Virus record (IMG/VR): IMGVR_UViG_3300044691_000429
Span: 1-64,000 of that record
DNA: 64,000 nt
From: a virus
Direction: 5' to 3' (one strand)
Shown: in pieces, positions 5,686 to 59,241 of the stretch
How the letters are laid out: every line of letters starts with the position of its first letter
Numbering within the stretch: position 1 is the first letter of the stretch
Program-made: the position numbers and the translations under genes
The notes under the pieces: model-generated
Database searches by the model: none
Told to the model about the DNA's origin: nothing
What the model saw: only the letters and a program-made list of their open reading frames with translations

Positions 5686-5716
5686 GCCCCGCTGGCCATG
5701 GGGGTGCCAGCGGGGC
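5686..5716. terminator. Bidirectional hairpin between convergent genes
   Basis: GCCCCGCTGGC (5686-5696) pairs perfectly with GCCAGCGGGGC (5706-5716). It lies between the rightward gene ending at 5676 and the leftward gene ending at 5807. Confidence 0.75.
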
Positions 5717-5806
5717 GGGGCGAGGGGGGTGGGGCGAGCCTGGCACCGAGCGGGGTGGCGGGCGGTGGGGATGCGGGGGAATGCGACGAAGGGCGTAGGG
5801 GGTGGG

Positions 5807-6073
5807 TCAGGCAGGCGGGGTGGGGGTGGCCGGGTGGTCGACGCGCCCGAGGACTTCCTGGCAGCAGCACCCGTCGATCGGGCCCCAAGACGGACAGACG
5901 CTGGTGATGCCCGCCTTGTGACCGCAGGGCTCGTTCCAGAAGCTCTCGTCGCAGCCGCACTTGTCGCTGTCGTGCCAGGCCGGAACGGGCTGCTTGCACT
6001 GGTCGCAGACGAGGTGCGGGTTGGCGAAGGCGATCTCGGTGTGGGTTCGGGTGTGCGTGCGCGTGATGGTCAC
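5807..6073 (-). CDS. Cys-rich zinc-binding hypothetical protein
   Basis: 88 residues, GTG start. CDQCK, CGCDE, an EPCGH site, a lone Cys in SVCPSW and a CCC cluster suggest two metal sites. Third gene of a leftward operon headed by the small HTH gene at 6268; the intergenic gap is 3 bases. No family recognised. Confidence 0.6.
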   Translation of the reverse strand: MTITRTHTRTHTEIAFANPHLVCDQCKQPVPAWHDSDKCGCDESFWNEPCGHKAGITSVCPSWGPIDGCCCQEVLGRVDHPATPTPPA

Positions 6074-6076
6074 GAT

Positions 6077-6271
6077 TCAGCTCTCCTCGGGCGGGGTGGG
6101 GGTGGGCTCCGGGTGTGTCGTCATGAGGTCGCTCTCCGACCACTCTCCGAGGGCTTCGTCTTCGTGCCGGTCGGCTGGTTGGTGGCCGCGCGGTAGGAAG
6201 CACACCGCGTCGATGGCCTCAATGTCCGGCCAGAAGACGGTACGGGCGCCGCACGCCTCTTTCTCGGTCAT
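6077..6271 (-). CDS. Small hypothetical protein
   Basis: 64 residues. MTEKEACGARTVFW, then AVCFLPRGH, resembles short Streptomyces proteins with a Cys/His pair followed by an acidic tail. The ATG overlaps the HTH gene stop (ATGA), implying coupled translation. Function unknown. Confidence 0.55.
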   Translation of the reverse strand: MTEKEACGARTVFWPDIEAIDAVCFLPRGHQPADRHEDEALGEWSESDLMTTHPEPTPTPPEES

Positions 6272-6501
6272 GGCGTCCCCTTCTTCGGTCCCGGCTTGGC
6301 GGGCTCGATGCCTGCGAGGCGGGAGAACTTGCGGACATAGGCGGCTGTGAACGGGGAGTGGTTGACCACGTCGGTGGGGCGCTTGTCCGCCTTGAGGGCT
6401 GCGATCACGGCGTCGATCGCCTGCCGACGAGCCTCTTCGTGCGCCGCTTCCGTCTCTCGATAGCGACTCGTGGCCTGATCAAGGGCCTCCAATTCATCCA
6501 T
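6268..6501 (-). CDS. Small HTH protein, paralogue of the one at 15291
   Basis: 77 residues. A helical N-terminus is followed by RPTDVVNHSPFTAAYVRKFS (about 46-65), a helix-turn-helix, then RLAGIEP and a basic tail PGPKKG. The protein at 15291-15587 has the matching RPTEVAKLSGWTAAHVRKMA and AGIEP. ATG at 6501 follows TACTCT by 7 bases, so the transcript is probably leaderless. Its upstream region carries CGCAAC/GTTGCG boxes shared with the paralogue, making it a probable autoregulated switch for the divergent early gene at 6603. Confidence 0.75.
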   Translation of the reverse strand: MDELEALDQATSRYRETEAAHEEARRQAIDAVIAALKADKRPTDVVNHSPFTAAYVRKFSRLAGIEPAKPGPKKGTP

Positions 6502-6595
6502 GCGCAACAGAGTATCGCAACAGGGTTGCGCGGTCACTCCCTAGCGCGCTACTTTGAATCGCAACAAAGAAGCGATTGCATAAAGCGCAACAGGG
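6502..6595. promoter_or_regulatory. Divergent promoter with CGCAAC/GTTGCG operator array
   Basis: A palindrome CGCAAC-AGG-GTTGCG lies at 6516-6530. Its right half supplies -35 TTGCGC (6526-6531), followed after 18 bp by -10 TACTTT (6550-6555), driving 6603 rightward. Extra CGCAAC boxes are at 6503-6508, 6560-6565 and 6586-6591. Leftward, TACTCT in the palindrome flank gives a leaderless start at 6501. The same layout occurs at 15600-15639. Confidence 0.7.
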
Positions 6596-6602
6596 GGACC
6601 CG

Positions 6603-6923
6603 ATGACCCGCACCGCCCGCCGCACGATCCGCAGCATCCGCCGCAGCATCCGCGCCGCAGTCCAGGCCGGTCAGAAGCTCGTCACCGCCGTGCGCGGGGC
6701 GAGGTTCGGCGTGCTGGTCGCCCTGTTCGCCGCGATCGACCGGGGCGCCACCGTGCGGATCGGCTACGTCGACTCCAAGGGCGTCGCCTCCGTCCGCGAC
6801 ATCACCCCGCACCGCCTCGACCCCACCACCGCCGGGAACATCACCTGCCGCGCGTTCGACCACCGCGACGGCGAGGACACCACGTTCCGGGTCGACCGGA
6901 TGACCAGCCTGGGGGTCGGTTAG
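6603..6923 (+). CDS. Mini WYL-domain protein
   Basis: 106 residues. The basic N-terminus (TRTARRTIRSIRRSIRAA) is followed by a stretch with the hallmarks of a WYL ligand-sensing domain: ATVRIGYVDSKGVASVRDIT, then PHRL, a CRAFDHRDGEDTTFRVDRM core and a terminal Gly-rich end. WYL proteins bind nucleotides or nucleic acids and often regulate phage-defence loci. No separate HTH is present; the Arg-rich segment may bind nucleic acid. First gene of the rightward early operon under the operator array. Confidence 0.65.
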   Translation: MTRTARRTIRSIRRSIRAAVQAGQKLVTAVRGARFGVLVALFAAIDRGATVRIGYVDSKGVASVRDITPHRLDPTTAGNITCRAFDHRDGEDTTFRVDRMTSLGVG

Positions 6924-6947
6924 GCCGAGTTCAACGCGGTCGCCGAA

Positions 6948-7169
6948 GTGATCCCCGCGCCCTTCAAGTTCGCCGCACACCTGACCCCCGGCGACCGGAT
7001 CGCGCTGCACGGGTCGGATCAGACCGTCGCCTACGTCGAAAACTGGAGCGGACCGACGGCCGCCGTGTTCACCGACGTCACCGGCGACGACCCGTGGCTC
7101 CTCGACCCGGGCGCCCACGTCACCATCTGCCTCGCGCAGGAGATCCGATTTCCCAACCGCCCCGCCTGA
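6948..7169 (+). CDS. Hypothetical protein
   Basis: 73 residues, GTG start. The sequence FAAHLTPGDRIALHGSDQTV and AHVTICLAQEIRFP suggests a small beta-barrel. Second gene of the rightward early operon, 24 bases after the WYL gene. No family recognised. Confidence 0.5.
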   Translation: MIPAPFKFAAHLTPGDRIALHGSDQTVAYVENWSGPTAAVFTDVTGDDPWLLDPGAHVTICLAQEIRFPNRPA

Positions 7170-7203
7170 TCCCCCACCCGCCTAACGAAACCGAAGGCGC
7201 ACC

Positions 7204-7617
7204 ATGGACCAAACTTCGCGCGCCGCCTACGACCTCGTCCGGTCCTCCTGGATCGACCTGATCCGCCAGCATGGCTGGTCCGAGATCTACAACCGCGCGG
7301 AACTCGACCGGGCCCGCTCCCACTGGCGACAGTTCACCGACGGGGACGACTGGGTCGAGGCCGGGATCACCGCCCACCGCGCCCACTGGGACGGCTCCTG
7401 CAACCGCCCGACGTGCCAGCTCCACGGGGAGACCGAGCCGGCCGCCGCCGAGGACGAGGGCGACGGCGACTGGGGCGCCCCGGGACCGCTCAGCCTCGGC
7501 GACAGCTACCGGCCGGAGACCGACCCGGTGAAGATCCGCGTCCAGGAAGAAAACCTCGCCCGACTGCGCGCCCGGATGCGGGGGCTCCACGAGGAACAGG
7601 CGACTTGGACCCCCTAA
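7204..7617 (+). CDS. Hypothetical protein
   Basis: 137 residues, ATG with upstream GAAGGC. Contains a possible metal site (HWDGSCNRPTCQLH, about 63-76), an acidic middle and a C-terminal helix (QEENLARLRARMRGLHEE). Part of the early operon. Function unknown. Confidence 0.55.
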   Translation: MDQTSRAAYDLVRSSWIDLIRQHGWSEIYNRAELDRARSHWRQFTDGDDWVEAGITAHRAHWDGSCNRPTCQLHGETEPAAAEDEGDGDWGAPGPLSLGDSYRPETDPVKIRVQEENLARLRARMRGLHEEQATWTP

Positions 7618-7711
7618 CCCCCACCCCCGTCCCGGCCGTCTCCCCCAAGCGCGCGGCCGGGTCGGGTGGGGGGTGGCTGACCCGCTGACTGAGAAGGAAG
7701 GACCACCCGTC

Positions 7712-7954
7712 ATGACCCGAGGCACGCTCCACCCGGGAGTCGTCCGCTGTCCCCCGTATGCGATCGCCAGTCGCCGCCTCAACGCGTTCTCCGACACCGC
7801 GAGCCTTGAGCAGATCCAGGAGCAGATCAACGCGCGCCGCGCCGAAGTCCGCCCGCTGGAACGCCACATCGAATGGCTCGAAGACCTCCTCGCCCGGCGC
7901 ACGGAACACGTCGCCAACGGGGGCAACCCGCCCCGGGGCTACGACCCCGCCTGA
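7712..7954 (+). CDS. Small coiled-coil hypothetical protein
   Basis: 80 residues. ATG at 7712 was preferred over 7673 because AGAAGGAAGGA lies upstream at normal spacing. The middle, SLEQIQEQINARRAEVRPLE, is a predicted coiled coil. Function unknown. Confidence 0.6.
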   Translation: MTRGTLHPGVVRCPPYAIASRRLNAFSDTASLEQIQEQINARRAEVRPLERHIEWLEDLLARRTEHVANGGNPPRGYDPA

Positions 7955-7996
7955 CCACCACCTGCCCGCCGCACCATCCGATCAAGGAGCCACCGC

Positions 7997-8317
7997 ATGA
8001 GCATCGCCATCTCAACCTCAGTAGGACCGATGGACGTGGCCACCACCGAGCCCGTCCCCGGCCTGCACGTCTACGAGATCCCCGCTGGAGTCAGTCCCGA
8101 CTCGCCGTACCGCTGGATCCTCGCCCACCACGCGGGTGCCGCACTCGCCTCGTTCGAGACGGCCGAGGCGGCGACCCGGGCCGCCGAGAGCGTGGGCCCG
8201 CTCGCCGACTGGTCCCGGAACGCGATGACCACGGCCAATCAGGTCAGCTTCGGCGGCAACACCGAGCGCCTGATGGAGCTGCTCACCGAACACGGCGGCC
8301 AGCACCCCAACGCCTGA
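7997..8317 (+). CDS. Hypothetical protein
   Basis: 106 residues, ATG with AAGGAG-type ribosome binding site. HVYEIPAGVSPDSPYRWILA then a helical C-terminal half. No family recognised; early-operon gene. Confidence 0.55.
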   Translation: MSIAISTSVGPMDVATTEPVPGLHVYEIPAGVSPDSPYRWILAHHAGAALASFETAEAATRAAESVGPLADWSRNAMTTANQVSFGGNTERLMELLTEHGGQHPNA

Positions 8318-8403
8318 TCGCCACCCGGGTGCGCGGCCCCAGACGTGCGCCCTGCGAGGCACTCAGCCCGATCAGCCCGCCACTCGAAGAAAGGCACGAC
8401 CGC

Positions 8404-8802
8404 ATGATCCGCGAAGACCGCTTCCTGATCAGCCGCCGCCCGTATGCGGTGGACCTGTCCAGCCTGCGCGGCGACACCGCCCCCACGCCGAACGGCCGCC
8501 GGCCCAGCAGCTTCGACGGCCGCATCAACGCCGTCTGGTTCCGCCGCAAGCAGGGCACGACCGCCGCCTGCATCGGCACCCTGTGGGATCTCCAGTACCC
8601 CACCCCGGCCGACGCCACCGCCTTCCTGCTCGCGCACGAGGACGGCCGGTACGGAGGCGACTGCGAAGGCCGATGGGACGGCGACAGCTACTGGGGCAAC
8701 GTCACGCTCACCGTGCAGGAACAGCACCTGGCCACCCTCCGGCCGATGCTCGCCGCGTACCCCGCCATCCCGGCCGGCTACGACGGGTGGTGGAGATTCT
8801 GA
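8404..8802 (+). CDS. Hypothetical protein
   Basis: 132 residues, ATG with AAGAAAGG upstream. Aromatic-rich, with WFRRKQGTTAACIGTLWDLQ near the middle and a C-terminus ending WWRF. Its stop overlaps the next start (TGATG). Function unknown. Confidence 0.55.
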   Translation: MIREDRFLISRRPYAVDLSSLRGDTAPTPNGRRPSSFDGRINAVWFRRKQGTTAACIGTLWDLQYPTPADATAFLLAHEDGRYGGDCEGRWDGDSYWGNVTLTVQEQHLATLRPMLAAYPAIPAGYDGWWRF

Positions 8803-9008
8803 TGGCCGCCGAACCGATCACCGCCTGCCTGCTCCACGCCGACTTCCACACCATGGAATCGGGCTGCTGGGAGATCACCCTCAACTGGTACTTCGAGCAC
8901 CAGGAGTTGTCGCCCGCCGCCCAGCGAGCCGCCTATCAGGCCGCGGTGGAGCGCCGCATTCTCTACGGCCTGCGCACCCCGGCCGGACAGGAAGCCACCG
9001 ATGGCTGA
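8802..9008 (+). CDS. Small hypothetical protein
   Basis: 68 residues, coupled by overlap to both neighbours. CLLHADFHTMESGCWEITLN then a helix (SPAAQRAAYQAAVERR). Function unknown. Confidence 0.55.
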   Translation: MAAEPITACLLHADFHTMESGCWEITLNWYFEHQELSPAAQRAAYQAAVERRILYGLRTPAGQEATDG

Positions 9009-9177
9009 GCTGCACCAGCACCGCGACCCTCACGGCCGCCGCCTGTACGCGACCACCGACAACAACCGCATCGTCCTCGTTCTGACCACGCCCGCAGCAC
9101 CCGGCGCCGTCCGCGTCGAGTTCACCCCCGCCGAATGGCAGGCCCTCACCGACGCGATCAACGAGACCCCCGCCTAA
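9001..9177 (+). CDS. Small hypothetical protein
   Basis: 58 residues from ATG 9001, overlapping the previous gene by 8 bases. RRLYATTDNNRIVLVLTTP followed by a helix FTPAEWQALTDAINETP. Codon use is Streptomyces-like. Function unknown. Confidence 0.55.
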   Translation: MAELHQHRDPHGRRLYATTDNNRIVLVLTTPAAPGAVRVEFTPAEWQALTDAINETPA

Positions 9178-9209
9178 CCCCGCCGCCGTCCCGAGAGGAG
9201 CCCCCCGCC

Positions 9210-9434
9210 GTGTACCTCCACCAGTTGCGCGCCGCGATGGCCACGATCCGCGCCCGCTGGGAGCACGGGCACGACGGGCTCACCCCGGGGTGCGCGCTGT
9301 GCGCCGACGAGCAGGCCGAGGTGCGGGCGCTCATCGCCGTCGACCGGGCGCTGACGGGGCGGCACGAAACCCGCTGGCCGGCCCCGCACGGAACGTCCAC
9401 CATCAGGACCACCCACCAGAAAGGCCCGCTGTGA
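9210..9434 (+). CDS. Small hypothetical protein upstream of RNA ligase
   Basis: 74 residues, GTG after GAGAGGAG. Contains HGHDGLTPGCALCADEQAEV, a possible Cys/His metal site. Its stop overlaps the GTG of the RNA ligase gene, so the two are probably co-translated. Confidence 0.55.
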   Translation: MYLHQLRAAMATIRARWEHGHDGLTPGCALCADEQAEVRALIAVDRALTGRHETRWPAPHGTSTIRTTHQKGPL

Positions 9435-10558
9435 CCCAGCTCGACAGCCTCATCCCGCCCGCAGACCTGGCCGCCGCGATCGAGGCTGGCCACGTCACCC
9501 GCAAGACCCACCCGGCGCTGCCTCTCTCGATCTACACCTACACGCGGGAGTGCCAGTACGGGCACATCTGGACGCCGGTCACGATGCGGTGCCGCGGCCT
9601 GATCTCTGACGACGTGTCCGGCGAGGTGGTGGCCCTGCCGTTCCCGAAGATTTTCGTGACCGGCATGCACGGCGTCTTCGATTTCGCGCCGCCGCTCCCG
9701 GCCGAGCCGTTCGAGATCTTCGAGAAGGCCGACGGCTCGCTGATCATCGCGTTCTACTACGACGGCCGGTGGCACGCCGCGTCCAAGGGCTCGTTCATCA
9801 GCGAGCAGGCCGTGTGGGCGCAGGAAGTCCTCGACAGCGCGGACCTGAGCGGCCTCGACACGGGCCTGACGCACCTGGCCGAGGCGATCTACCCGGCCAA
9901 CCGCATCGTCGTGGACTACGGCTCGCGCGAAGAGCTGATGCTGCTGGCCGCCTACCGGCCGGCCGACGGGACCGAAGCCCCGCTGTCCGAGGTGGCCTCC
10001 CAGTGGAAGCCGGTCGGCCCCGTCGTCCGGTCGTGGGGCCTGAGCGATGGTCTCGCCGAGCTGGAGCAGCTTGCCGTCGCGAGCACGACTCTCGCCGGCG
10101 CCACGGTCGGCGGCACCGAAGAGGAGGGCTACGTCATCCGGTACGCCTCCGGTGCCCGCGCGAAGATCAAGCTGTCCGCCTACCTGACGCTGCACAAGCT
10201 GTTCACCGGCACCAACGAGCGCACCATCTGGGAGGTGCTGGCGTCCGGTCAGGAGCCCGCCGTGCTGTTCGACCAGGTCCCGGACGAGTTCGCCGACTGG
10301 GCCCGTGGGATCGCGGCCGGCCTGCGCGAGCAGCACGACCTGCTCGTTGGCGAGGCCACCGACGCCTACGGAACCGTCATGGCGACGCTCCCCGCCGACC
10401 CCGACCGGAAGACCTTCGCGCTGGCCGCGGTGAAGTCCGAGTACCGGTCCGCCCTGTTCCTCGTCCACGACGGCCGCGACAAGGCGGTCGGCGACTGGGC
10501 GTGGAAGCAGATCAAGCCCCGCGGCGACAAGCCGTTCAAGAACGACGAGGAAGGCTGA
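9431..10558 (+). CDS. T4 Rnl1-like RNA ligase
   Basis: 375 residues, GTG start overlapping the upstream stop. The nucleotidyltransferase motif I is EKADGSLII (about residues 97-105), with Lys98 the predicted AMP-accepting lysine. Motif Ia-like AASKGSF follows, then VDYGSREELMLLAAYR (motif III region), EEEGYVIRY (motif IV) and ARAKIKLSAYLTLHKL (motif V; both lysines present). This order and the LHKL ending fit the T4 Rnl1 family, which re-joins broken tRNA. The next gene encodes the matching end-healing enzyme, so the pair forms an RNA-repair cassette. Confidence 0.9.
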   Translation: MTQLDSLIPPADLAAAIEAGHVTRKTHPALPLSIYTYTRECQYGHIWTPVTMRCRGLISDDVSGEVVALPFPKIFVTGMHGVFDFAPPLPAEPFEIFEKADGSLIIAFYYDGRWHAASKGSFISEQAVWAQEVLDSADLSGLDTGLTHLAEAIYPANRIVVDYGSREELMLLAAYRPADGTEAPLSEVASQWKPVGPVVRSWGLSDGLAELEQLAVASTTLAGATVGGTEEEGYVIRYASGARAKIKLSAYLTLHKLFTGTNERTIWEVLASGQEPAVLFDQVPDEFADWARGIAAGLREQHDLLVGEATDAYGTVMATLPADPDRKTFALAAVKSEYRSALFLVHDGRDKAVGDWAWKQIKPRGDKPFKNDEEG

Positions 10559-10559
10559 C

Positions 10560-11477
10560 ATGCCCACGATCCACGTCATGACCGGGTTGCCAGCAAGCGG
10601 CAAAACAACGGCGGCCCGCCAGATGCTCGCCGAGTCCAAGGGCCGCATCCGGCGCGTCAACCTGGACGACCTGCGGGCGATGCTCGACTACTCCGGCACC
10701 GGTGAGCGGGTGTGGTCCCACGCCCACGAGCAGACCGCGCTGGGCATCCAGGACTCTGCGGTGCGCGAGGCCATAGCGGGCGGCTTCGATGTCGTGGTCG
10801 ACAACACGCACCTGACGCCGCATATCCCGAAGCGCCTCAAGGCCGCCGCGCTCGGGCAGGCCGCATTCCAGGTGCACGACTTCACCGGCGTGCCCATCGA
10901 GGAGTGCCTGCGCCGGGATGCCGTCCGGGAGGTGTCGGTCGGCGAAGACGTGATCCGCAAGCTGCACGCCAACCACGTCAAGGCCACCCGCAACGGCTGG
11001 CGCCTCACCGATGCGTGGATGAACGACGCCCCGGCCGTCGAGCACTACGTGCCCGACGTCTCGCTGCCGTCCGCGATCATGTGCGACATCGACGGGACCC
11101 TCGCGCTCATGGGCGACCGCGGCCCGTTCGACTTCGCCCGCTGCGGCGAAGACCTCCTCAACGAGTCCGTGCGCCGGGCGCTCGTCTCGTTTCGCCTGGC
11201 GAACGACGACCGGATCGTCCTGCTGTCCGGCCGCGGCGACGACTTCCGTACCGAGACCGAGGCGTGGTTGGCCAAGCACGACGTGCCGTTCGACGAGTTG
11301 TGGATGCGCGCGACCGGCGACTCCCGCCGGGACGACATCGTGAAGGCCGAGCTGTTCAACGAGCACGTCAGGAACCGGTTCCACGTGCGGGTCAGCCTGG
11401 ACGACCGCGACAGGGTCGTGGCCCTCTGGCGGCGCATGGGGCTGCCGACGTGGCAGGTCAACTACGGAGCCTTCTAG
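10560..11477 (+). CDS. Polynucleotide kinase-phosphatase (T4 Pnkp-like)
   Basis: 305 residues. N-terminal kinase: GLPASGKTT P-loop (about 9-17), VNLDDLRAMLDY and DNTHLTP. C-terminal acylphosphatase of the DxDGT/HAD type: MCDIDGTLA (about 174-182), LLSGRGDDFR, and the terminal LDDRDRVVALWRRMGLPTWQ. This is the domain order of T4 Pnkp, which removes 3'/cyclic phosphates and adds 5' phosphate so that Rnl1 can seal. One base separates it from the ligase gene. The predicted role is repair of tRNA cut by host anticodon nucleases. Confidence 0.92.
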   Translation: MPTIHVMTGLPASGKTTAARQMLAESKGRIRRVNLDDLRAMLDYSGTGERVWSHAHEQTALGIQDSAVREAIAGGFDVVVDNTHLTPHIPKRLKAAALGQAAFQVHDFTGVPIEECLRRDAVREVSVGEDVIRKLHANHVKATRNGWRLTDAWMNDAPAVEHYVPDVSLPSAIMCDIDGTLALMGDRGPFDFARCGEDLLNESVRRALVSFRLANDDRIVLLSGRGDDFRTETEAWLAKHDVPFDELWMRATGDSRRDDIVKAELFNEHVRNRFHVRVSLDDRDRVVALWRRMGLPTWQVNYGAF

Positions 11478-11696
11478 CCGCGACCACCCCTACCCCGCCA
11501 CCCGGGGCGAAACCCGGGCGAGGGCGGGCGGGGCGGGGCAGGATGACCGCTCCCCCCGCGCGTAACGGTCGGCCGACCGCGGGGGAGTTGGCCCCCTTCG
11601 CTCCCGTCATCCGAGGCCCGTTACCGGCGGTAGCCTCGTATAATTTCCCTTGTAAGTCCCTAAGTTGCCGACGCGTCAGCCGCCCAAGGAGAGCCC
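11478..11696 (+). promoter_or_regulatory. Promoter region of the recombinase operon
   Basis: This gap holds a perfect 14-bp palindrome CGGTCGGCCGACCG (11566-11579), an inverted pair GTAACGG (11562-11568)/CCGTTAC (11618-11624), and a consensus -10 TATAAT (11639-11644), rare in such GC-rich DNA. No good -35 is visible at normal spacing, so activation may be needed. The next gene starts 53 bases after the -10. Confidence 0.55.
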
Positions 11697-12530
11697 GTGG
11701 AATCCTCTCGATCCCTCGCCGCAGTGCCACCGCAGTCGGACCGGAAGCCTCGTAGCTACGAGGAGATCGTGCGCGCGATCTACAACGACCGACGTGCCGA
11801 CCTCAAGCAGCGGGAGTTGCTTATGGCGGTGGCCTACGCCCTGTACGTGGCACGCGAAGAGGGGGTGAGCCCGCTACGGGAGGCCCGCCGGGTGCTGGGG
11901 CGCGAGAGCGGCCTCGCGCGGTACGACCAACTGATGCAGGCAGACCTACCCCGCTACGAGTCGCCGAGGGAAGCCGGGAACTGGGGACCCAGCAACGCCC
12001 CGTCGTGCGAGGCCCCGCGCCTGCGCCCGTACCGGCAACGCCTCGGCAAGTCCAGCGAGCCGGACCCCACCGCCCCGGTTCCCATCCGCCCCTACGAACT
12101 GCCCCCGGAGCTGGCCGCGCTGAAGGAACAGGCAATGGCGACGTACACGCCGCCTCGGGACTGGCGAACAGAGGACGGCGTGTGTGGCGCCCAGTCTCAC
12201 CACAAGGTCATCGAGAAGGACCCGCGCACCGGATGGATCACCCCGCGCTGGTTCTGCAAGCGGCACAAGGACCACGCCGACCGTGTGGCCGAGCAGGTCC
12301 GTGCACAGAACGAAGCCGCGCCCGAGCCGGTCCCCAATCGCGGCGGGCTGCTGCCCTGCTACTTCAAAGCCGACTGGGAGAAGGTCTACCGCCACTACGT
12401 CGGGGAGTTCTGGGAGCCCCCGAAGTACGGGCTGTGCGCAGACGACTGGCCGACGCCCGGCGAGTCATTCACGGCGCACCGGCGCCTGCGCATGGTCCTC
12501 AGCGTTGACGACTCCGAGGGCCAGTCGTGA
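11697..12530 (+). CDS. Hypothetical protein coupled to the recombinase
   Basis: 277 residues, GTG after AAGGAGAG. YEEIVRAIYNDRRADLKQRE and LREARRVLGRESGL look like a helical, possibly DNA-binding N-terminus; the middle is Pro-rich; DGVCGAQSHH and WFCKRHKDH suggest a zinc site. Its stop overlaps the GTG of the tyrosine recombinase (GTGA), so it may be a recombination accessory factor. That role is inference from position only. Confidence 0.5.
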   Translation: MESSRSLAAVPPQSDRKPRSYEEIVRAIYNDRRADLKQRELLMAVAYALYVAREEGVSPLREARRVLGRESGLARYDQLMQADLPRYESPREAGNWGPSNAPSCEAPRLRPYRQRLGKSSEPDPTAPVPIRPYELPPELAALKEQAMATYTPPRDWRTEDGVCGAQSHHKVIEKDPRTGWITPRWFCKRHKDHADRVAEQVRAQNEAAPEPVPNRGGLLPCYFKADWEKVYRHYVGEFWEPPKYGLCADDWPTPGESFTAHRRLRMVLSVDDSEGQS

Positions 12531-13687
12531 CCAACGAGTCCGAGGGGGTGGTCGACGCGGAGCTTGTGGACGGCGACCATCTCCCCGCCATCGCTCCGGC
12601 GCCTGCCGAAGTGATGACCGCCCGCCCATTGGTCGACCGGCACACGATCCTCGTTCCCGGCCAGGCCATCCCGACCGAGGCGGACCAGCCGACGTACACC
12701 GAGCGGGACCTGTACGTCTCCGAGGCCACGGCAGAGCGGCTGAAGAACAAGTCGAAGCCGCGCAACACCAGCCGGAACTACGAGTCGCAGCGGGAGATCT
12801 TCCGGAAGTGGTGCCAGGACCACGGGCGCGTCGCCAAGCCGTGCACCACCGCTACCTACGTGGAGTACGTCAACCACCTCATCGACACCGGCCGTGCCCC
12901 CAACGCGATCAGCGTCGCCATGTCCGCGATCCGCACGTGGATGCCCGACGACAAGAAGCCCGGCACGACCGAGGCGCGCGGCATGCTCAACGAGTACCGG
13001 AAGGAGTGGAACAAGCGCGTCGGCGTGAAGAAGGCCCCCGCGATCACGGAAGAGATGCTGCGCGCCATGATCGCCACCTGCGACCCGACCGAGCCCACCG
13101 GCATCCGCGACCGGTGCGTCCTCCTCCTCGGCCGGGGCGCCCTCAACCGCAGGATCGAACTCGCCGACCTCACCATCGGCAACGTCACCATCGAAGCGGA
13201 CGGCGTCGCCCTCTGGTTCTCGTCGTCCAAGACGGACCAGGAGGCCAAGGGCGAGGAGACGTTCATCCCCGCCTGGGACGACCCCGCCATCGATCCGGTA
13301 CGCGCAACCCGGGCCTGGCTCGACGTGCTGCACCACCTCGGCGTCCACGACGGCGCCCTGTTCCGCGCGCTCACCAAGGGGGGCACGCTCCAGTCCCGGG
13401 TGACGGCGACCGAGCGGGGCGAGCACGTCACCGGGGACGCTATCAACGAGTGGGTGCGCGGCCGGGCCCAGACCGCCGGGCTGGCCGGCTGGAAGAAGGT
13501 CACCGCCCACGGGCTGCGGCGGGGAGGCGCCCAGGCCATCTCCGACGCGGGGGGCGACCCCACGACGCAGGGTCGGTGGAAGCCGGGATCGGCCACGGTG
13601 AAGCGCGAGTACCTCGACCGGGCGCAGTCCCGGGCGAACAACCCGTGGCTGAAGCTGGCGAGGCCGCCGAGGGACGAGGACGCCTGA
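12527..13687 (+). CDS. Tyrosine recombinase/integrase
   Basis: 386 residues. A core-binding domain (TSRNYESQREIFRKW onward, about 80-165) precedes the catalytic domain: Arg in GALNRRIELADL, Lys in SSSKTDQ, H-x-x-R in TAHGLRRGGA, Trp in QGRWKPGS (replacing the second His) and the nucleophile Tyr in KREYLDRA. All key residues are present, so it is probably active. It may integrate the element or resolve dimers. A hairpin terminator and a gene-free stretch, a possible attP, follow. Confidence 0.9.
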   Translation: MTNESEGVVDAELVDGDHLPAIAPAPAEVMTARPLVDRHTILVPGQAIPTEADQPTYTERDLYVSEATAERLKNKSKPRNTSRNYESQREIFRKWCQDHGRVAKPCTTATYVEYVNHLIDTGRAPNAISVAMSAIRTWMPDDKKPGTTEARGMLNEYRKEWNKRVGVKKAPAITEEMLRAMIATCDPTEPTGIRDRCVLLLGRGALNRRIELADLTIGNVTIEADGVALWFSSSKTDQEAKGEETFIPAWDDPAIDPVRATRAWLDVLHHLGVHDGALFRALTKGGTLQSRVTATERGEHVTGDAINEWVRGRAQTAGLAGWKKVTAHGLRRGGAQAISDAGGDPTTQGRWKPGSATVKREYLDRAQSRANNPWLKLARPPRDEDA

Positions 13688-13706
13688 CGCCCCCCACGCG
13701 CGAAAA

Positions 13707-13733
13707 CCGCCCGCCTCTCGGGGAGGCGGGCGG
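13707..13733 (+). terminator. Terminator of the recombinase gene
   Basis: CCGCCCGCCTC (13707-13717) pairs perfectly with GAGGCGGGCGG (13723-13733) around a 5-base loop, 20 bases after the stop codon. Confidence 0.8.
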
Positions 13734-13888
13734 GCGGCAGCGTAGTTGGCGGGGGGCCCTGGGTTCAACCCATCCCGGGAGCACGGGGTTCACGCGGGCC
13801 CTCCATGGACCGCCCGGCGATCAACCGGGCGATGCTCCATCGCGCACCAGTGTGGCACGGGGCGCCGACAGCGGGCGGACACGCCGAA

Positions 13889-13928
13889 AGCCGCCCCCGC
13901 CCGCCAGTTACGGCAGGAGGGGGCGGCT
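13889..13928. terminator. Hairpin terminator
   Basis: AGCCGCCCCC (13889-13898) and GGGGGCGGCT (13919-13928) form a perfect 10-bp stem with a 20-base loop. Confidence 0.5.
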
Positions 13929-14033
13929 CGGCGTCTCCGAGCCCTTCGCCGCCGCGTCACAGTCCCATCACAACGCGCACACGCCCGCCGCACCCGCGCC
14001 ACACTCCCCGGGACACCACACCCAGGGGGGAAC

Positions 14034-14384
14034 ATGCGCCACCGCACCACCATGACCGCGCTCGCACTCGCCGCGGCCGGGTTACTGCTCGCCGGCTGCT
14101 CGTCCGGTACAAGCGGGACCCCGCCGGCCGTCACCAGCACTTCGCCGCCAATGGTCACCGCGCGGACGCCGTTCAAGATGCCCAGCCATTCGCCCGAGCC
14201 GCTGTCGACTCTGGCCACGGATCCGGACACCGCGGCCTGCTACAAGGCGATCAAGGCTCAGTACGAACCGGGGACGATCACCCTCACTGGCGCTCCGACC
14301 GAGCCCCCGGCTTGCCAGAGTCTCACCACCGACCAGGTGTCGGAGATCGCGACGGCCGTTATCAACGACCAGTTGGGACTCTGA
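14034..14384 (+). CDS. Small lipoprotein
   Basis: 116 residues. Basic N-terminus MRHRTT, hydrophobic ALALAAAGLL and lipobox LLAGC give a clear lipoprotein signal with Cys about residue 21. A Ser/Thr/Pro linker is followed by a small domain with two Cys (AACYKAIKAQYEPGTITL and PPACQSLTTDQ) that may form a disulfide. Ribosome binding site GGGGGG. Surface lipoproteins in temperate elements often block superinfection; that is a guess here. Confidence 0.75.
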   Translation: MRHRTTMTALALAAAGLLLAGCSSGTSGTPPAVTSTSPPMVTARTPFKMPSHSPEPLSTLATDPDTAACYKAIKAQYEPGTITLTGAPTEPPACQSLTTDQVSEIATAVINDQLGL

Positions 14385-14475
14385 GTCGGCGCGCGCCGGC
14401 CCGGCCACCAGCAGGACGGTGGCGGCACGGGGCGTGTTCCGGGTCAGCGCGGCCGGCGAGCGGCCGACTGGCGCG

Positions 14476-14721
14476 TCAGCCGCTGTACTGGTCTGTGTAC
14501 ACCGGCCCGCCCGGTTTCGACTCACACCCCTCGGACGCGCCCGGGGTGCCGAAGTGCGTGACCACGAGGCCGTATCCCTGCATGGTGCCGCAGCCTTTGT
14601 CGGTCCAGCGTTGTGCGGCGATCGTCCAGGCGAGGAGTAGCAGGATCACGAATCCGGCGATTGTGGTGCGGCGTCGCATCCAGGGCTTGTCGGCGCCGGG
14701 GGTGGTGCTGGTGTCCGTCAT
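14476..14721 (-). CDS. Small single-span membrane protein
   Basis: 81 residues. One transmembrane segment, IAGFVILLLLAWTIAA (about 21-36), then a short domain with two Cys (KGCGTMQGYG and EGCESKPGG). Convergent with the lipoprotein gene. Function unknown. Confidence 0.6.
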   Translation of the reverse strand: MTDTSTTPGADKPWMRRRTTIAGFVILLLLAWTIAAQRWTDKGCGTMQGYGLVVTHFGTPGASEGCESKPGGPVYTDQYSG

Positions 14722-14850
14722 GCGCGCGATTGTGCATGCGTTGGAGGTGCGTGGTGGGCGAAGTGATCGGTCCGTGACATGCCGCCGCCCCGTTGCCGGA
14801 TCACACGGCGGCGGGGCGGGAGGGTGGGCAGCCGGTAGTCAGGATGCTGT

Positions 14851-15294
14851 TTAGCCCATCGGCCACCACTCCCGCCGGTAATCCGCGTGCTCGCGGTAGG
14901 GAAGGGTCAGCGTCATCAGCATGGCGAAGTCGTGCATCTGCGCGTCGAAGTCATCGACGCGCCGCAGGTGGTCTTCGATGCAGTCGATCAGTCGCCGCTT
15001 CGCCTCGGCCTCGATGATGACCCGAGCCGGGTCGTGGCGGACGGCGTGGCGTGCCACCTGCTCGGTGTGCGCACCGCCGCCGCTCATCCCACTGCCCACC
15101 ACCTCGATCACCTGCTCGTAGCTACCGGCCCCTGCGGTAGCCACGATGCTCCAGTAGGTGCCGCCGTCGTCGGCGTGACTCCCGGAGAGGCGCCAGTGGG
15201 AGCCGTGGATGCGGCCGCCGAAGTCCGCACTCTGGCGGGCTGCTTCCTCGTCCTCGGCGATCCGGGCCCGCAGGAAGTCGATCAGGTCGCTCAT
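14851..15294 (-). CDS. DUF6221-family protein
   Basis: 147 residues. N-terminus IDFLRARIAEDEEAAR, central ARHAVRHDPARVI..EAEAKRRLID and C-terminus LPYREHADYRREW match the Streptomyces DUF6221 pattern as I know it. Function unknown. The ATG overlaps the stop of the HTH gene at 15291 (ATGA), so it is probably the second gene of that autoregulated operon. A second member lies at 47427. Confidence 0.8.
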   Translation of the reverse strand: MSDLIDFLRARIAEDEEAARQSADFGGRIHGSHWRLSGSHADDGGTYWSIVATAGAGSYEQVIEVVGSGMSGGGAHTEQVARHAVRHDPARVIIEAEAKRRLIDCIEDHLRRVDDFDAQMHDFAMLMTLTLPYREHADYRREWWPMG

Positions 15295-15587
15295 GTGTTA
15301 CTCCCCTTCTCGGCCGTAGCTCGCGTCTTCATCCGCTCGGCGCGTTCCCTGTAGCGCTCATCGGGTTCGATGCCTGCTTCGCGGGCCATCTTGCGCACGT
15401 GGGCAGCGGTCCACCCGGAGAGTTTGGCGACCTCGGTCGGCCGGTGGGCGCCGTCCCGTAGCGCCGCGAGAACGATTTCCTTCAGCTCGGCGCTGGACTT
15501 CTTCAGCCGATCCTCGTCCCGCTTCCGGCGGGCCCCGGCTGCGGCGATTTCTTCGAGGCTCGGCGGCTCGGGCTCGGTCGCTGTCAT
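15291..15587 (-). CDS. Small HTH protein, paralogue of the one at 6268
   Basis: 98 residues. Helical N-terminus, then RPTEVAKLSGWTAAHVRKMA (about 54-73), a helix-turn-helix, and REAGIEP followed by a basic tail. It is recognisably related to the protein at 6268. TACCGT lies 6 bases before the ATG, suggesting a leaderless transcript. The palindrome CGCAAC-TAG-GTTGCG is just upstream. It probably represses its own promoter and the divergent promoter for 15716 onward. Confidence 0.75.
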   Translation of the reverse strand: MTATEPEPPSLEEIAAAGARRKRDEDRLKKSSAELKEIVLAALRDGAHRPTEVAKLSGWTAAHVRKMAREAGIEPDERYRERAERMKTRATAEKGSNT

Positions 15588-15599
15588 GGCGCCACGGTA

Positions 15600-15639
15600 C
15601 CGCAACTAGGTTGCGATGGGGAGTTGCGCGCTGTAGTTT
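15600..15639. promoter_or_regulatory. Divergent promoter with CGCAAC-N3-GTTGCG palindrome
   Basis: Palindrome CGCAACTAGGTTGCG at 15601-15615. Its right half gives -35 TTGCGA (15611-15616); after exactly 17 bp comes -10 TAGTTT (15634-15639). A further GTTGCG lies at 15623-15628. Same architecture as 6502-6595. This is the best candidate promoter for the long rightward unit starting at 15716. Confidence 0.7.
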
Positions 15640-15715
15640 GGTCTCTAACCTGCGCCTTGGTATCGCTACTCATGATCGATAGTGGCGCACCGAGGAAGCC
15701 GACCAGGAAAGCGAG

Positions 15716-16327
15716 ATGCGAGCCTTGTCGAACGCCCCATCCACCCCCACGCGGACCGCCCGGCCGGCTCGATGGCTAGATGCGCACATCTACGTGTTGG
15801 GCTTCCAGGACGGCCTGATCAAGGTTGGCCAAAGCATCGATGCCCAGAGGCGGATTCGGCAGCACGAAGACAACGGTGCGGCCTACGGCAACCCCGTGGT
15901 GGCACAGTGGGCTTCACCACGGCATCCCCAGGTCGCCGAGAACGAGCGCGCGCTGATAGCTCACTGCATGGAGCACGGGCGGCAGGTCCGGGGGCGTGAA
16001 TGGTTCACGGACGTCACCTTCGAAAGCGTGCGCTCCTATGCGTTGACCTTGCCGTTCGCCTGTGTCACGCCCGAACGGATCGAGCAGCGCGAGCACGTCC
16101 AGAGGCCGAGGCCGAATCCGCGTAAAACTCCCCCCAGAGGCCCGGCCGCCACTGCCCCGGCGCGCGTCCCCGTCGCCGACCTCAGCCAAGTCGTGACCAG
16201 CGCCATCGTGGCCGTGACCGACACCCTCACGTCCGCGCAGGTCCGGGAGATGTCCCGGCTCATCGTCGCCGAACTCGCCCGGCGGGGACTGGCCGACGAA
16301 CCGCCGACCGAAGGAGGAAGCGCATGA
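15716..16327 (+). CDS. T5orf172-type GIY-YIG domain protein
   Basis: 203 residues, first ATG in frame. DAHIYVLGFQDGLIKVGQSI (about 22-41) and RRIRQHED give the Tyr, the second-strand aromatic equivalent and the Arg of the T5orf172 branch of the GIY-YIG nuclease superfamily; ENERALIAHC follows with the conserved Glu. The C-terminal half is Pro-rich then helical. Such phage proteins are presumed DNA nucleases or DNA-binding factors. First gene of a long rightward unit of overlapping genes. Confidence 0.75.
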   Translation: MRALSNAPSTPTRTARPARWLDAHIYVLGFQDGLIKVGQSIDAQRRIRQHEDNGAAYGNPVVAQWASPRHPQVAENERALIAHCMEHGRQVRGREWFTDVTFESVRSYALTLPFACVTPERIEQREHVQRPRPNPRKTPPRGPAATAPARVPVADLSQVVTSAIVAVTDTLTSAQVREMSRLIVAELARRGLADEPPTEGGSA

Positions 16328-16491
16328 GCGATGAAGTCCAGTGCTGGCACATCGAGCCGGGCACCCCGTGCGACTGGGATATCTGCCGCCAGCCCGAGCG
16401 GCTCGCGGCAGGCGATTACGGCACCGACCCGGGCGTGGAGCCGCTGCCTACGCCGAACCTCAACCGGCTACGCCATGGGAGCGACCTCTGA
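16324..16491 (+). CDS. Micro-protein
   Basis: 55 residues from ATG 16324, overlapping both neighbours. CWHIEPGTPCDWDICRQPER contains three Cys and a His. Typical of small zinc-binding proteins in Streptomyces phages. Function unknown. Confidence 0.55.
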   Translation: MSDEVQCWHIEPGTPCDWDICRQPERLAAGDYGTDPGVEPLPTPNLNRLRHGSDL

Positions 16492-17546
16492 TGACCACCT
16501 ACGACGAACTCACCCCGGACGCCCTCTTCCTGCTGGAAAACCTCAGCGAACTCGACATCGTCCAGGACTGTGCCGACCGAGGCGCCAAGATCGCCGAACT
16601 GCGCGAGGAACTCGTTCAGCAGCGGGAGCGGGCCGACAACGCCGCGCCCCGCCTCGACCTCGCAACGCAAGCCCTCATCGCCGATGGCTACTTCACCCGG
16701 GCCGAGGTCGGCGATGAAGGCAGCCCGGACATCGCCCCCCGCATCACGGAACTCGCCGTCCATCTCCGAGCCGAACTCGCCGCGTTCCACGAGGGCGAAG
16801 AGCCCTATGACGACGACCGGCTCATACCCACGCCGGGTCAGTGGATCTGGCGGTGGAACCGCGCCACGCCCGCTGAACGGCTCGGCGTCGTGCAGGTCAT
16901 CAAGACCCTCGGCGGCCAGCGGGACCGCGTCGAATCCCTCGCGCGGAGTTGGGCGGACGCTCCGCCGCTCATCCCCGGCCAGGCCCTTGCGGACCTCCGC
17001 AACGCTCTCTCCGACGACCCGCAGCCCACCTATGTTCAGGCCGTACAGGCAGGCGATCGCCTGATCCGCGTCACCGGTACCCGCGTACCGACGCCCGACG
17101 AACGCGCGGCGATCGGGGCGCTGCTCGACGCCAACGAGGACGCGCTCGGGCAGAAGCAGCCCGCTACCGGCGGCATATATGGCGCTCTGCACAAGGCCGT
17201 GGCTGAGACGGTCACCCCGCCCGCCGTCGGCAAGACCGTCGACTGCGGGCCGCAGCCCCTCATGGCCCGGGTCCTCGGTGTTGCGGCATGGCCGTGCGAG
17301 TCGGGTCGCCACCCAGATCACCCCATGAACACCTGCGAGGAGTACGACGCGCTGGTTGAGCTGCGGAAGTGCAAGGTCATCGTGCCGCACCCCTTCCAGC
17401 AGGCCACCGGCGAGGACGTGGGCGTATGCAGATGCACCAAGTGGCCCAAGCATCACATTCACACCGGCGATCGAGCGGTCTGCGCCTGCGAGGAATGCTG
17501 CCCCGTGCCATACGAATACCTCCCGCGCACCAAGGAGCAGTCGTGA
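16491..17546 (+). CDS. Hypothetical protein with Cys-rich C-terminus
   Basis: 351 residues, ATG overlapping the previous stop. The N-terminal half is helical (IAELREELVQQRERAD). The last ~70 residues have VCRCTKWPKHH and CACEECCP, which look like a metal-binding end. Small HTH, nuclease and capsid families do not fit. Its stop overlaps the next GTG. Confidence 0.55.
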   Translation: MTTYDELTPDALFLLENLSELDIVQDCADRGAKIAELREELVQQRERADNAAPRLDLATQALIADGYFTRAEVGDEGSPDIAPRITELAVHLRAELAAFHEGEEPYDDDRLIPTPGQWIWRWNRATPAERLGVVQVIKTLGGQRDRVESLARSWADAPPLIPGQALADLRNALSDDPQPTYVQAVQAGDRLIRVTGTRVPTPDERAAIGALLDANEDALGQKQPATGGIYGALHKAVAETVTPPAVGKTVDCGPQPLMARVLGVAAWPCESGRHPDHPMNTCEEYDALVELRKCKVIVPHPFQQATGEDVGVCRCTKWPKHHIHTGDRAVCACEECCPVPYEYLPRTKEQS

Positions 17547-20407: not shown

Positions 20408-20622
20408 TGACCGACTGGATTGACCGGATGCTCGCCGATGGGCTGGCCCGCGCCGGGGGCCTGTTCGCTCAGGAGCAGCATCTCGGGCAGCAGTTGTGGA
20501 GCGTCGGCGGGTGGCGCTGCTACGGGCGCATGATGCCCGATGGAAGCGCCTTGACGATCCGGCGTCCCGGGAAGGCGCTGGCCTACGAGATCGTCGGCGT
20601 GGACCTGGACGCCCTGAAGTGA
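20407..20622 (+). CDS. Hypothetical protein between terminase subunits
   Basis: 71 residues, overlapping both terminase genes by a few bases. Helical start (DWIDRMLADGLARAGGLF), beta-rich end (GWRCYGRMMPDGSALTIRRP). Probably co-translated with the packaging genes. Function unknown. Confidence 0.5.
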   Translation: MTDWIDRMLADGLARAGGLFAQEQHLGQQLWSVGGWRCYGRMMPDGSALTIRRPGKALAYEIVGVDLDALK

Positions 20623-41075: not shown

Positions 41076-41543
41076 ATGGCCTTCACCGCATGGGCTGGCG
41101 GAGACAAGCTCACCGCACTGCGCCTCAACGGCATGGTCGGCACGCCCACCGCATACACCCCGGTCGTCACCAACGGCGGCAGCGCCACGTTCACGACGAA
41201 GACCGGCATCTTCGTCATGGTCGGCCCCCTGACCTGGATCAACGTCGACATCACTATTGGCACGGCCGGATCCGGCGCGGGCGTGGTGACGATCTCCATG
41301 CCCACCACCCCGGACCGCACGCAGCGGCAGGTCGTCACTATGCACACCGAGTCGATCGGCGCCAACGGCAACGCGATCAGCCACATCGGCGGCGGTGAGG
41401 CGGTGTTCCTCGCTGGCGGGTCCGGCGCCGCCACCGACCGGCTCCGCACCGACGAGGGCAGCACCACCGCCCGCGAGAACAACATTCTCGGCGCCGACCT
41501 GCTCACCGGCGGCCACATCACCATCCAGGGGTTCTACCTGTGA
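41076..41543 (+). CDS. Small minor tail protein
   Basis: 155 residues, ATG after GAAGGGGG. FTAWAGGDKLTALRLNGMVG then beta-rich repeats. The start motif AGDKLTA is familiar from small tail-fibre-associated proteins of Streptomyces phages. Likely virion component of the tail tip. Confidence 0.6.
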   Translation: MAFTAWAGGDKLTALRLNGMVGTPTAYTPVVTNGGSATFTTKTGIFVMVGPLTWINVDITIGTAGSGAGVVTISMPTTPDRTQRQVVTMHTESIGANGNAISHIGGGEAVFLAGGSGAATDRLRTDEGSTTARENNILGADLLTGGHITIQGFYL

Positions 41544-58326: not shown

Positions 58327-59076
58327 TCAGGAGGAGAAGACGTACTCCAAGATGTAGTTGGACCCGTCGAGCGTCATCTCATTGACTTCTACGAGGCGGT
58401 CATTCTGGTCCGCCGCGATGCGGATGATCTGGAAGACGGGAGTGCCAGGGCCCAAACTGAGATCGGCCGCCTCCTGGGGGGTGGGCATCCTAGTCCTCAC
58501 CTCCTCCTTGAACCGCGTGGGCGCATGGCCACTCTCGGCGAGTCGGGCGTACATACCGCCGGGGCCAGTGTCCTGCTGAGTGATGGCCGTGCCAGCCGCC
58601 AAGCTCATTGGCACATACGAGACGGCGGTCTGAATGAGCCGCTCCTCCACATAGAAGCGCCGGCTCCGGCGGCACATGCGCTCGTCAGACTCCAGGAGTT
58701 GAGCCACGTGATCGGGCGCATCGACCTCGTTGACGTCCACCTCGACGCGACGCGGGCGGTCCTCCAGGTCAACGTCCCAGATCGACCGCCCGGCATGCCA
58801 CACCTCCGAAGAGAGGCGCTGCACTGCGGGCCGTCTGATTGGGCGGAAGGCGCGGACGGTGACGCCGACCCCCTGCCTGCTCTCAACGAGGCCTTCTGCG
58901 CGAAGGGCGTCCAGGGCCTGCCGCACGGTGGACCGAGCGGCCGCATGCCGCTCCATGAGGCCGTTCTCGCCTTCGATCTTCGACCCCGGCGCCAGCTCGC
59001 CGCCGAGGATCTTCGCGCGCAGCTCGTCCGCGATCTCCTGATGGCGGCGCGGCCCGCGCTCGGGCTTGCTGGGCAA
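58327..59076 (-). CDS. GntR/HutC-family repressor (KorSA-like)
   Basis: 249 residues. N-terminal winged helix: HQEIADELRAKILGGELAPG, then SKIEGENGLMERHAAARSTV and GLVESRQGVGVTV. C-terminal UTRA effector domain (about 85-245), with MYARLAESGHAPTRFKEEVR and LEYVFSS at the end. TTG at 59076 is the start, 6 bases after AGGAGG; an ATG at 59081 is out of frame. In pSAM2-type elements KorSA of this family represses the transfer genes. The shared palindrome at 58220 and 59156 supports that role here. Confidence 0.88.
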   Translation of the reverse strand: MPSKPERGPRRHQEIADELRAKILGGELAPGSKIEGENGLMERHAAARSTVRQALDALRAEGLVESRQGVGVTVRAFRPIRRPAVQRLSSEVWHAGRSIWDVDLEDRPRRVEVDVNEVDAPDHVAQLLESDERMCRRSRRFYVEERLIQTAVSYVPMSLAAGTAITQQDTGPGGMYARLAESGHAPTRFKEEVRTRMPTPQEAADLSLGPGTPVFQIIRIAADQNDRLVEVNEMTLDGSNYILEYVFSS

Positions 59077-59149
59077 GGCATTCCTCCTAGATCGGCTTCT
59101 TCAGAGATGTTAGCTACCGACCGGTTGACGTGCGAACTCTGCGAATCCC

Positions 59150-59178
59150 TTGCGGTTCTTCGAAGAAGTGGTCAGAAT
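59150..59178 (+). promoter_or_regulatory. Promoter with TTCTTCGAAGAA operator in the spacer
   Basis: -35 TTGCGG (59150-59155) and -10 CAGAAT (59173-59178) are 17 bp apart. The 12-bp palindrome (59156-59167) starts directly after the -35. It drives the GIY-YIG gene at 59242; the repressor gene on the other strand may be controlled here too. Confidence 0.65.
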
Positions 59179-59241
59179 CAATGCTACGCAACGCCGCTTC
59201 ACGAACGGAAGTGGCCACCCTGCGTAGCCGAGGGGATACGT

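What the first reader, a model, noticed from the sequence alone, without database searches (positions are those of the whole stretch)
6502..15639. Two paralogous HTH genes share the same operator-in-promoter design 9 kb apart
Loci at 6502-6595 and 15600-15639 both have CGCAAC-N3-GTTGCG whose right half forms the -35 (TTGCGC/TTGCGA), followed after 18 or 17 bp by TACTTT/TAGTTT, and both drive a leaderless leftward HTH gene. The HTH cores (RPTDVVNHSPF.. and RPTEVAKLSGW..) are similar. The two regulators may cross-regulate, giving a linked switch for the early and late-side operons that bound the RNA-repair/recombinase block.
Basis: partly seen in the sequence, partly recalled or inferred. Interest (0 to 1): 0.7.

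Follow-up and report, generated by a model that had tools for sequence, protein, structure and literature searches.

The report
Self-regulating phage DNA-binding switch, twice
A phage of high-GC actinomycete bacteria carries two copies of a small, previously unclassified DNA-binding protein, each encoded beside an almost identical control site that sits inside a pair of back-to-back promoters, and more than fifty related loci share this layout, so it is very probably a self-regulating genetic switch that can now be tested directly.

Summary
CGCAAC-N3-GTTGCG occurs exactly twice in the 93-kb virus record (expected about 0.014), each time just upstream of one of two homologous HTH genes (40% identity, E 5e-11). 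One correction matters. The TTGCGC-18-TACTTT and TTGCGA-17-TAGTTT promoters lie on the + strand and point away from the HTH genes, towards the divergent operons. The HTH genes have their own promoter, TACTCT/TACCGT abutting the box and 6-7 nt before ATG, so they are predicted to be leaderless. In 51 of 57 homologous loci from phages and actinomycete genomes (43 distinct promoter regions) the box lies exactly 13 or 14 nt before the start. All 51 have TAnnnT on the HTH side, and all 51 have TAnnnT 17/18 bp from the divergent -35. Fifteen thousand other start codons show essentially none. Best reading: an uncurated family of small autorepressors that close both promoters of a divergent pair. The two window genes belong to old, separate subfamilies, not a recent duplication; of 26 virus records examined only this one carries two family genes behind the same box. 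Cross-regulation is therefore plausible but untested.

The parts
6268..6501 (-). HTH gene 1 (77 aa, MDELEALDQATSRYRE...RPTDVVNHSPFTAAYVRK...)
   Evidence: ORF; homologous to gene 2; AF2 model: long helix 3-37 plus HTH 42-48/53-62, pLDDT 85
6509..6514 (-). predicted -10 TACTCT of the leaderless HTH gene 1 promoter, 7 nt before ATG
   Evidence: TAnnnT at this position in 51/51 box-bearing homologues against 0.14% of other start codons
6516..6530 (.). palindromic box CGCAACAGGGTTGCG (site 1)
6503..6530 (+). composite CGCAAC-N7-CGCAAC-N3-GTTGCG, site 1
   Evidence: half-site map
6560..6591 (+). two further CGCAAC half-sites (6560, 6586) 26 bp = 2 x 13 bp apart, just after the rightward -10
   Evidence: 13-bp spaced half-sites recur in gene-1 relatives
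6526..6555 (+). rightward promoter PR1: TTGCGC-N18-TACTTT
   Evidence: divergent TAnnnT at 17/18 bp in 51/51 homologues
6603..6923 (+). first gene of divergent operon 1 (SD AGGGGG at 6592-6597); genes on the same strand run on to RNA ligase, PNKP and tyrosine recombinase
9431..10558 (+). T4 Rnl1-like RNA ligase, inside the block between the two sites
   Evidence: PF09511 E 2.7e-10; phrog_562 E 2.4e-48
10560..11477 (+). polynucleotide kinase-phosphatase
   Evidence: PF25109 E 1.1e-48; phrog_505 E 2.8e-82
12527..13687 (+). tyrosine recombinase
   Evidence: PF00589 E 2.4e-6; phrog_1 E 1e-10
15291..15587 (-). HTH gene 2 (98 aa, MTATEPEPPSLEEIAAAG...RPTEVAKLSGWTAAHVRK...)
   Evidence: ORF; 72-76% identical to three viral relatives
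15594..15599 (-). predicted -10 TACCGT of the leaderless HTH gene 2 promoter, 6 nt before ATG
15601..15615 (.). palindromic box CGCAACTAGGTTGCG (site 2)
15601..15628 (-). composite CGCAAC-N7-CGCAAC-N3-GTTGCG, site 2 (opposite orientation to site 1 relative to the gene)
15611..15639 (+). rightward promoter PR2: TTGCGA-N17-TAGTTT
15716..16327 (+). first gene of divergent operon 2, T5orf172 (GIY-YIG-like) domain; genes on the same strand continue to terminase at 20496
   Evidence: PF10544 E 1.1e-5; terminase large subunit PF04466/phrog_2

Best explanation
Each locus is a self-contained autoregulatory switch. A small HTH protein (long N-terminal helix, probably for dimerisation, then an HTH) binds CGCAAS-N3-STTGCG. 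The box fills 15 of the 17 bp between the -35-like and -10 elements of the HTH gene's own leaderless promoter. Its far half is the -35 of the opposite, rightward promoter. Binding therefore closes both promoters: it limits the regulator's own synthesis and represses the divergent phage operon. Extra half-sites 13 bp away would strengthen this by side-by-side binding. In this phage two old subfamily members, each behind the same box, guard two operons: gene 1 the early-side RNA-repair/recombinase operon, gene 2 the one leading to terminase. They probably recognise each other's sites to some degree. Shown: sequences, homology, conserved architecture, rarity of the box. Inferred: binding, repression rather than activation, dimerisation, cross-regulation, lysogeny as the setting.
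For: Homologues in 39 viral loci and 16 genome loci of several actinomycete families. Of 57 loci, 51 have the box exactly 13 or 14 nt before the start with at most 2 mismatches; 51/51 then have TAnnnT on the HTH side and 51/51 on the divergent side at spacer 17 (36) or 18 (15), none at 12-16. After removing identical promoter regions 43 remain. Control: 15,722 other ATG/GTG in the same DNA give 4 box hits, all the same boxes read from the other strand or a second operator, and TAnnnT in 0.14%. In 26 virus records the box+TAnnnT pattern hits 22 times, every time at an HTH family gene, reversed-pattern control 0. In 591 genomes 6 hits: 4 family genes (2 new to the set), all with the divergent promoter, and 2 unrelated TetR genes without it. 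Leftward -35 resemblance peaks at exactly 17 bp in the gene-2 subfamily, 3.86/6 against 0.5-1.8 elsewhere. TAnnnT about 12 bp before the start is the known sign of leaderless genes (PMC3160421) and CGN-TAnnnT is a common mycobacterial -10 context (PMC3898074). A divergent member in record G006 has GTATC half-sites at the corresponding places and V->N in the recognition helix, as expected if the HTH itself reads the box.
Against: No binding, transcription or lysogeny data. A box between -35 and -10 could in principle serve an activator of MerR type, although the 17-bp spacer argues against that. The fold comparison gives only a generic HTH (no Foldseek hit below E 0.65; best VIA Z 6.1). Site 1 and site 2 differ in the placing of the extra half-site, and the two proteins come from separate subfamilies, so their preferences may differ.
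Confidence: 0.78

Rival explanations
1. Two insulated switches: each protein acts only on its own site; the shared box is inherited from the family and the two circuits do not talk.
For: The subfamilies are separated by a long, fully supported branch; extra half-sites are placed differently; another record (G006) carries two members with different half-sites, GTTGCG and GTATC, showing that insulation does evolve.
Against: Here the core boxes have the same half-sites and the recognition-helix core TAA[YH]VRK is shared; Y and H both occur with the same box within the gene-1 group.
Confidence: 0.35
2. The HTH proteins activate rather than repress the rightward promoters (an activator using the -35-overlapping box).
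For: The rightward -35 TTGCGn is only a moderate match to TTGACA, and activators often bind at -35 (general knowledge).
Against: The box also fills the spacer of the HTH promoter and abuts its -10, where binding would block polymerase; site 1 half-sites continue past the rightward -10 and start, a repressor position.
Confidence: 0.12
3. The box is a site for a host regulator or sigma factor, and the HTH protein is only linked to it.
For: Two Streptomyces TetR-family genes carry the same box+TAnnnT+ATG pattern, so other proteins can use such sites.
Against: In 26 virus records every exact box+TAnnnT hit lies at an HTH family gene; the half-site changes together with the recognition helix in G006.
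Confidence: 0.07

Closest known systems
Mycobacteriophage BPs repressor gp33 and its PR/Prep divergent promoters (PMC4557955)
   Same: Small phage-encoded repressor next to divergent promoters, palindromic operator inside the promoter, further half-sites; the early lytic operon is the target.
   Different: Operator CGACATATGTCG and an integration-dependent repressor binding five regulatory regions; here the box is in two places only, and it fills the leaderless regulator promoter's spacer while serving as the -35 of the other promoter.
RcoLS20 switch of plasmid pLS20 (PMC4207663)
   Same: Overlapping divergent promoters of a mobile element, one driving the regulator itself; multiple operator sites; autoregulation.
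   Different: Bacillus plasmid, tetramer with DNA looping, controls conjugation; no second regulator gene with the same operator described in the abstract.
phrog_34713 / phrog_686 (HTH DNA binding protein)
   Same: Weak profile matches of many members (19 and 13 of 30; best E 1.3e-7 and 1.3e-3).
   Different: No function or operator attached to phrog_34713; the phrog_686 match is marginal.
TrpR/FlhD/Fis-type HTH folds
   Same: Long helix followed by a helix-turn-helix (VIA Z about 5-6 for FlhDC and TrpR chains).
   Different: No significant Foldseek match, identity around 10%; a generic arrangement.

Membership tests
The box-linked small HTH family defined here | Homologous HTH core with P42, V45, S49, T52, A54, V56, R57, R61 (gene 1 numbering) | tested here: met
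   Invariant in all 30 aligned members, both window proteins included
The box-linked small HTH family defined here | CGCAAS-N3-STTGCG-N-TAnnnT, box ending 13/14 nt before the start | tested here: met
   Both window genes and 51 of 57 loci
The box-linked small HTH family defined here | Divergent TTGCGn-N17/18-TAnnnT | tested here: met
   51/51
Any curated Pfam or NCBIfam family | Score above the curated cut-off | tested here: not met
   No curated family matched; best values marginal and unrelated
phrog_34713 / phrog_686 | Profile match over most of the family | tested here: inconclusive
   E 1.3e-7 at best for 19/30 members; marginal for the other
TrpR/FlhD/Fis fold families | Significant structural similarity | tested here: inconclusive
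   Foldseek E at least 0.65; VIA Z up to 6.1, a level the tool warns is common for helical models
Phage immunity repressor (functional class) | Represses the early lytic promoter and confers superinfection immunity | not testable with these tools
   Needs lysogens and plaque assays
Leaderless gene | TAnnnT about 12 bp before the start, no SD | tested here: met
   Sequence and 51/51 conservation; the transcript start itself was not mapped

The most novel reading that the evidence does not exclude
One phage uses two anciently diverged members of the same repressor family on the same operator, so that the early-side (RNA repair/recombinase) and terminase-side operons form one cross-wired switch, with the mirrored extra half-site setting which protein dominates at which site; elsewhere the family avoids such cross-talk by changing its half-site (GTATC in G006).
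Probability: 0.4. Interest if true: 0.65.

Novelty: new variant of a known kind. Interest (0 to 1): 0.52.

Why it matters
It supplies a regulator family, absent from Pfam and NCBIfam, together with its predicted operator and both promoters, conserved in phages, prophages and apparent integrative elements across several actinomycete families. That gives candidate switch parts for Streptomyces and a natural set for studying how repressor-operator specificity diverges (GTTGCG against GTATC, with a recognition-helix V->N change to test). If the two window proteins cross-bind, it is an uncommon case of one phage running two operons through a shared operator read by two distant paralogues.

Tried and rejected
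Megablast of 5700-16600 and tblastn of both proteins against annotated phages, and of gene 2 against plasmids: no match. Generic sigma-70 scan: no promoter found, as expected for TAnnnT-type promoters. The loose pattern with 3 mismatches is uninformative (57 hits, 57.9 expected). The composite 28-bp operator as an exact search in IMG/VR hit 4 contigs, not examined gene by gene. ATCGCAACNNNGTTGCG is too common to be useful alone. Paper searches for GTTGCG gave nothing relevant in titles or abstracts. PDB sequence search gave only designed repeats and chance hits. Recent tandem duplication was considered and rejected on the tree. My first tally placed gene 1 one base off (13 instead of 14 nt to the ATG); corrected.
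Full report
WHAT WAS CHECKED. The window is bases 1-64,000 of a 93,141-bp IMG/VR virus record. The box CGCAAC-N3-GTTGCG is exact at 6516-6530 and 15601-15615 and nowhere else in the record, against 0.014 expected. Allowing three mismatches destroys the signal (57 found, 57.9 expected), so only the exact or near-exact box means anything. The two leftward HTH proteins align over 65 residues at 40% identity, E 5e-11.

CORRECTION OF THE PROMOTER READING. They would transcribe the genes starting at 6603 and 15716, both with plausible Shine-Dalgarno sequences, and not the leftward HTH genes. The HTH genes have TACTCT and TACCGT next to the box, ending 7 and 6 nt before their ATGs at 6501 and 15587, with no Shine-Dalgarno sequence. 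This is the layout of leaderless genes in high-GC bacteria (TAnnnT about 12 bp before the start, PMC3160421; CGN-TAnnnT is a common -10 context in M. tuberculosis, PMC3898074). So each site is a pair of overlapping divergent promoters: the palindrome is the -35 of the rightward one and fills 15 of the 17 spacer bases of the leftward one.

CONSERVATION. Homologues were found in viral contigs (3 per protein singly; 39 with an alignment) and in 16 genome loci from Streptomyces, Kitasatospora, Dactylosporangium, Nonomuraea, Streptosporangium, Micromonospora, Nocardiopsis and others. Without using the box to find them, 51 of 57 loci have it exactly 13 or 14 nt before the start with at most two mismatches (41 perfect); all 51 have TAnnnT at the HTH-side position and all 51 have TAnnnT 17 or 18 bp from the divergent -35, with none at spacers 12-16. 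The start codon and the 13/14 spacing were chosen to minimise mismatches, but few candidates existed per gene. Identical promoter regions removed, 43 remain: 22 in the gene-2 group (all 13 nt) and 21 in the gene-1 group (16 at 14 nt, 5 at 13). The six excluded loci include five distant relatives that keep TAnnnT 6-7 nt before the start but have another box.

CONTROLS. In the same DNA 15,722 other ATG/GTG codons gave four box hits, three being the same palindromes read from the other strand and one a second nearby operator; TAnnnT preceded 0.14% of them. In 26 virus records the pattern box+N+TAnnnT hit 22 times, each at a family gene, and the reversed pattern never. In a reverse test on 295 Streptomyces genomes (13-nt pattern) and 296 class-level genomes (14-nt pattern) the full pattern hit six times: four family genes (two already known, two new), all with the divergent promoter, and two unrelated TetR-family genes without it. 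The leftward -35 resembles TTGACA best at exactly 17 bp in the gene-2 group (3.86 of 6 against 0.5-1.8), and more weakly at 17/18 in the gene-1 group.

FINER STRUCTURE. Both window sites contain a 28-bp composite CGCAAC-N7-CGCAAC-N3-GTTGCG, in opposite orientations relative to the gene. In the gene-1 group half-sites recur at 13-bp steps (-48, -35, -22 and, next to the box, +22 from the box start), several just past the divergent -10, a repressor position. About half of the gene-2 group (12 of 22) has a CTCAG-N-CTGAG inverted repeat near the divergent -10, which the window's site 2 lacks; it may serve a second regulator.

THE PROTEIN. AlphaFold2 gives a long helix (3-37) and an HTH (42-48, 53-62), mean pLDDT 85. 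Foldseek finds nothing significant; VIA-align gives FlhD and TrpR chains at Z 5-6, a generic HTH. No Pfam or NCBIfam family fits; PHROGs gives an unnamed family at 1e-7 for some members. On the tree gene 2 lies in a fully supported Streptomycetaceae group and gene 1 outside it across a long branch (proteins are short and the bootstrap had not fully settled), so they are old relatives brought together, not a recent duplication. Among 26 records only this one has two members behind the same box; G006 has a second member with GTATC half-sites in the corresponding positions and an altered recognition helix (AAYVRK to PAYNRR). That is one natural case in which protein and site change together.

CONTEXT. 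The divergent operon of site 1 holds an RNA ligase, a kinase-phosphatase and a tyrosine recombinase; that of site 2 begins with a T5orf172 protein, and genes on the same strand reach terminase at 20.5 kb. In several relatives the divergent strand also leads to a terminase within 2-3 kb. Whether each run of genes is one transcript was not tested.

MECHANISM AND LIMITS. Most likely each protein represses its own leaderless promoter and the divergent operon by sitting on the shared palindrome. Binding, repression, dimerisation and cross-regulation are inferred; no experiment was possible. The design class is known (BPs PR/Prep, PMC4557955; RcoLS20, PMC4207663). What is new is the family with its operator, the dual role of the box, and two distant members sharing it in one phage.

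Noticed in passing
window 20496-23003 (+): Terminase large subunit ORF carries Hint/intein-splicing domains (PF13403, PF07591, PF14890), so the terminase gene appears to contain an intein.
   Followed up: no
L231 (G006:82000-84000), near 83002: A divergent family member with GTATC half-sites (GGATAC-AAG-GTATCC upstream; GTATCT twice next to the start) instead of GTTGCG and V->N in the recognition helix: a natural specificity variant.
   Followed up: partly
L239 and L240: Two Streptomyces TetR-family genes have the same box-TAnnnT-ATG layout but no divergent promoter: independent use of a similar operator.
   Followed up: partly
gene-2 group promoters, e.g. L007, L165, L171: CTCAG-N-CTGAG inverted repeat around the divergent -10 in 12 of 22 and a conserved TAGCGAT block about 55-60 bp upstream of the box; possible sites for a second regulator, absent or altered in the window's site 2.
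   Followed up: partly
L155, L158, L159, L161, L164: In Nonomuraea/Streptosporangium/Sphaerisporangium loci the family gene lies beside membrane proteins that look like Spd/DUF2637-type proteins of integrative elements (from memory; the one tested by Pfam gave no hit), suggesting the family also serves non-phage elements.
   Followed up: partly
L157: A metagenome-assembled actinobacterial member has two HTH family domains in one 245-aa protein, as if two copies had fused.
   Followed up: no
window 41429-41513 (-): A tRNA-Asn(GTT) gene within the virus record.
   Followed up: no
window 58525-59802 (+): A 425-aa protein with a GIY-YIG catalytic domain (PF01541, E 4.8e-6), a second GIY-YIG-like gene besides the T5orf172 gene at 15716.
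   Followed up: no
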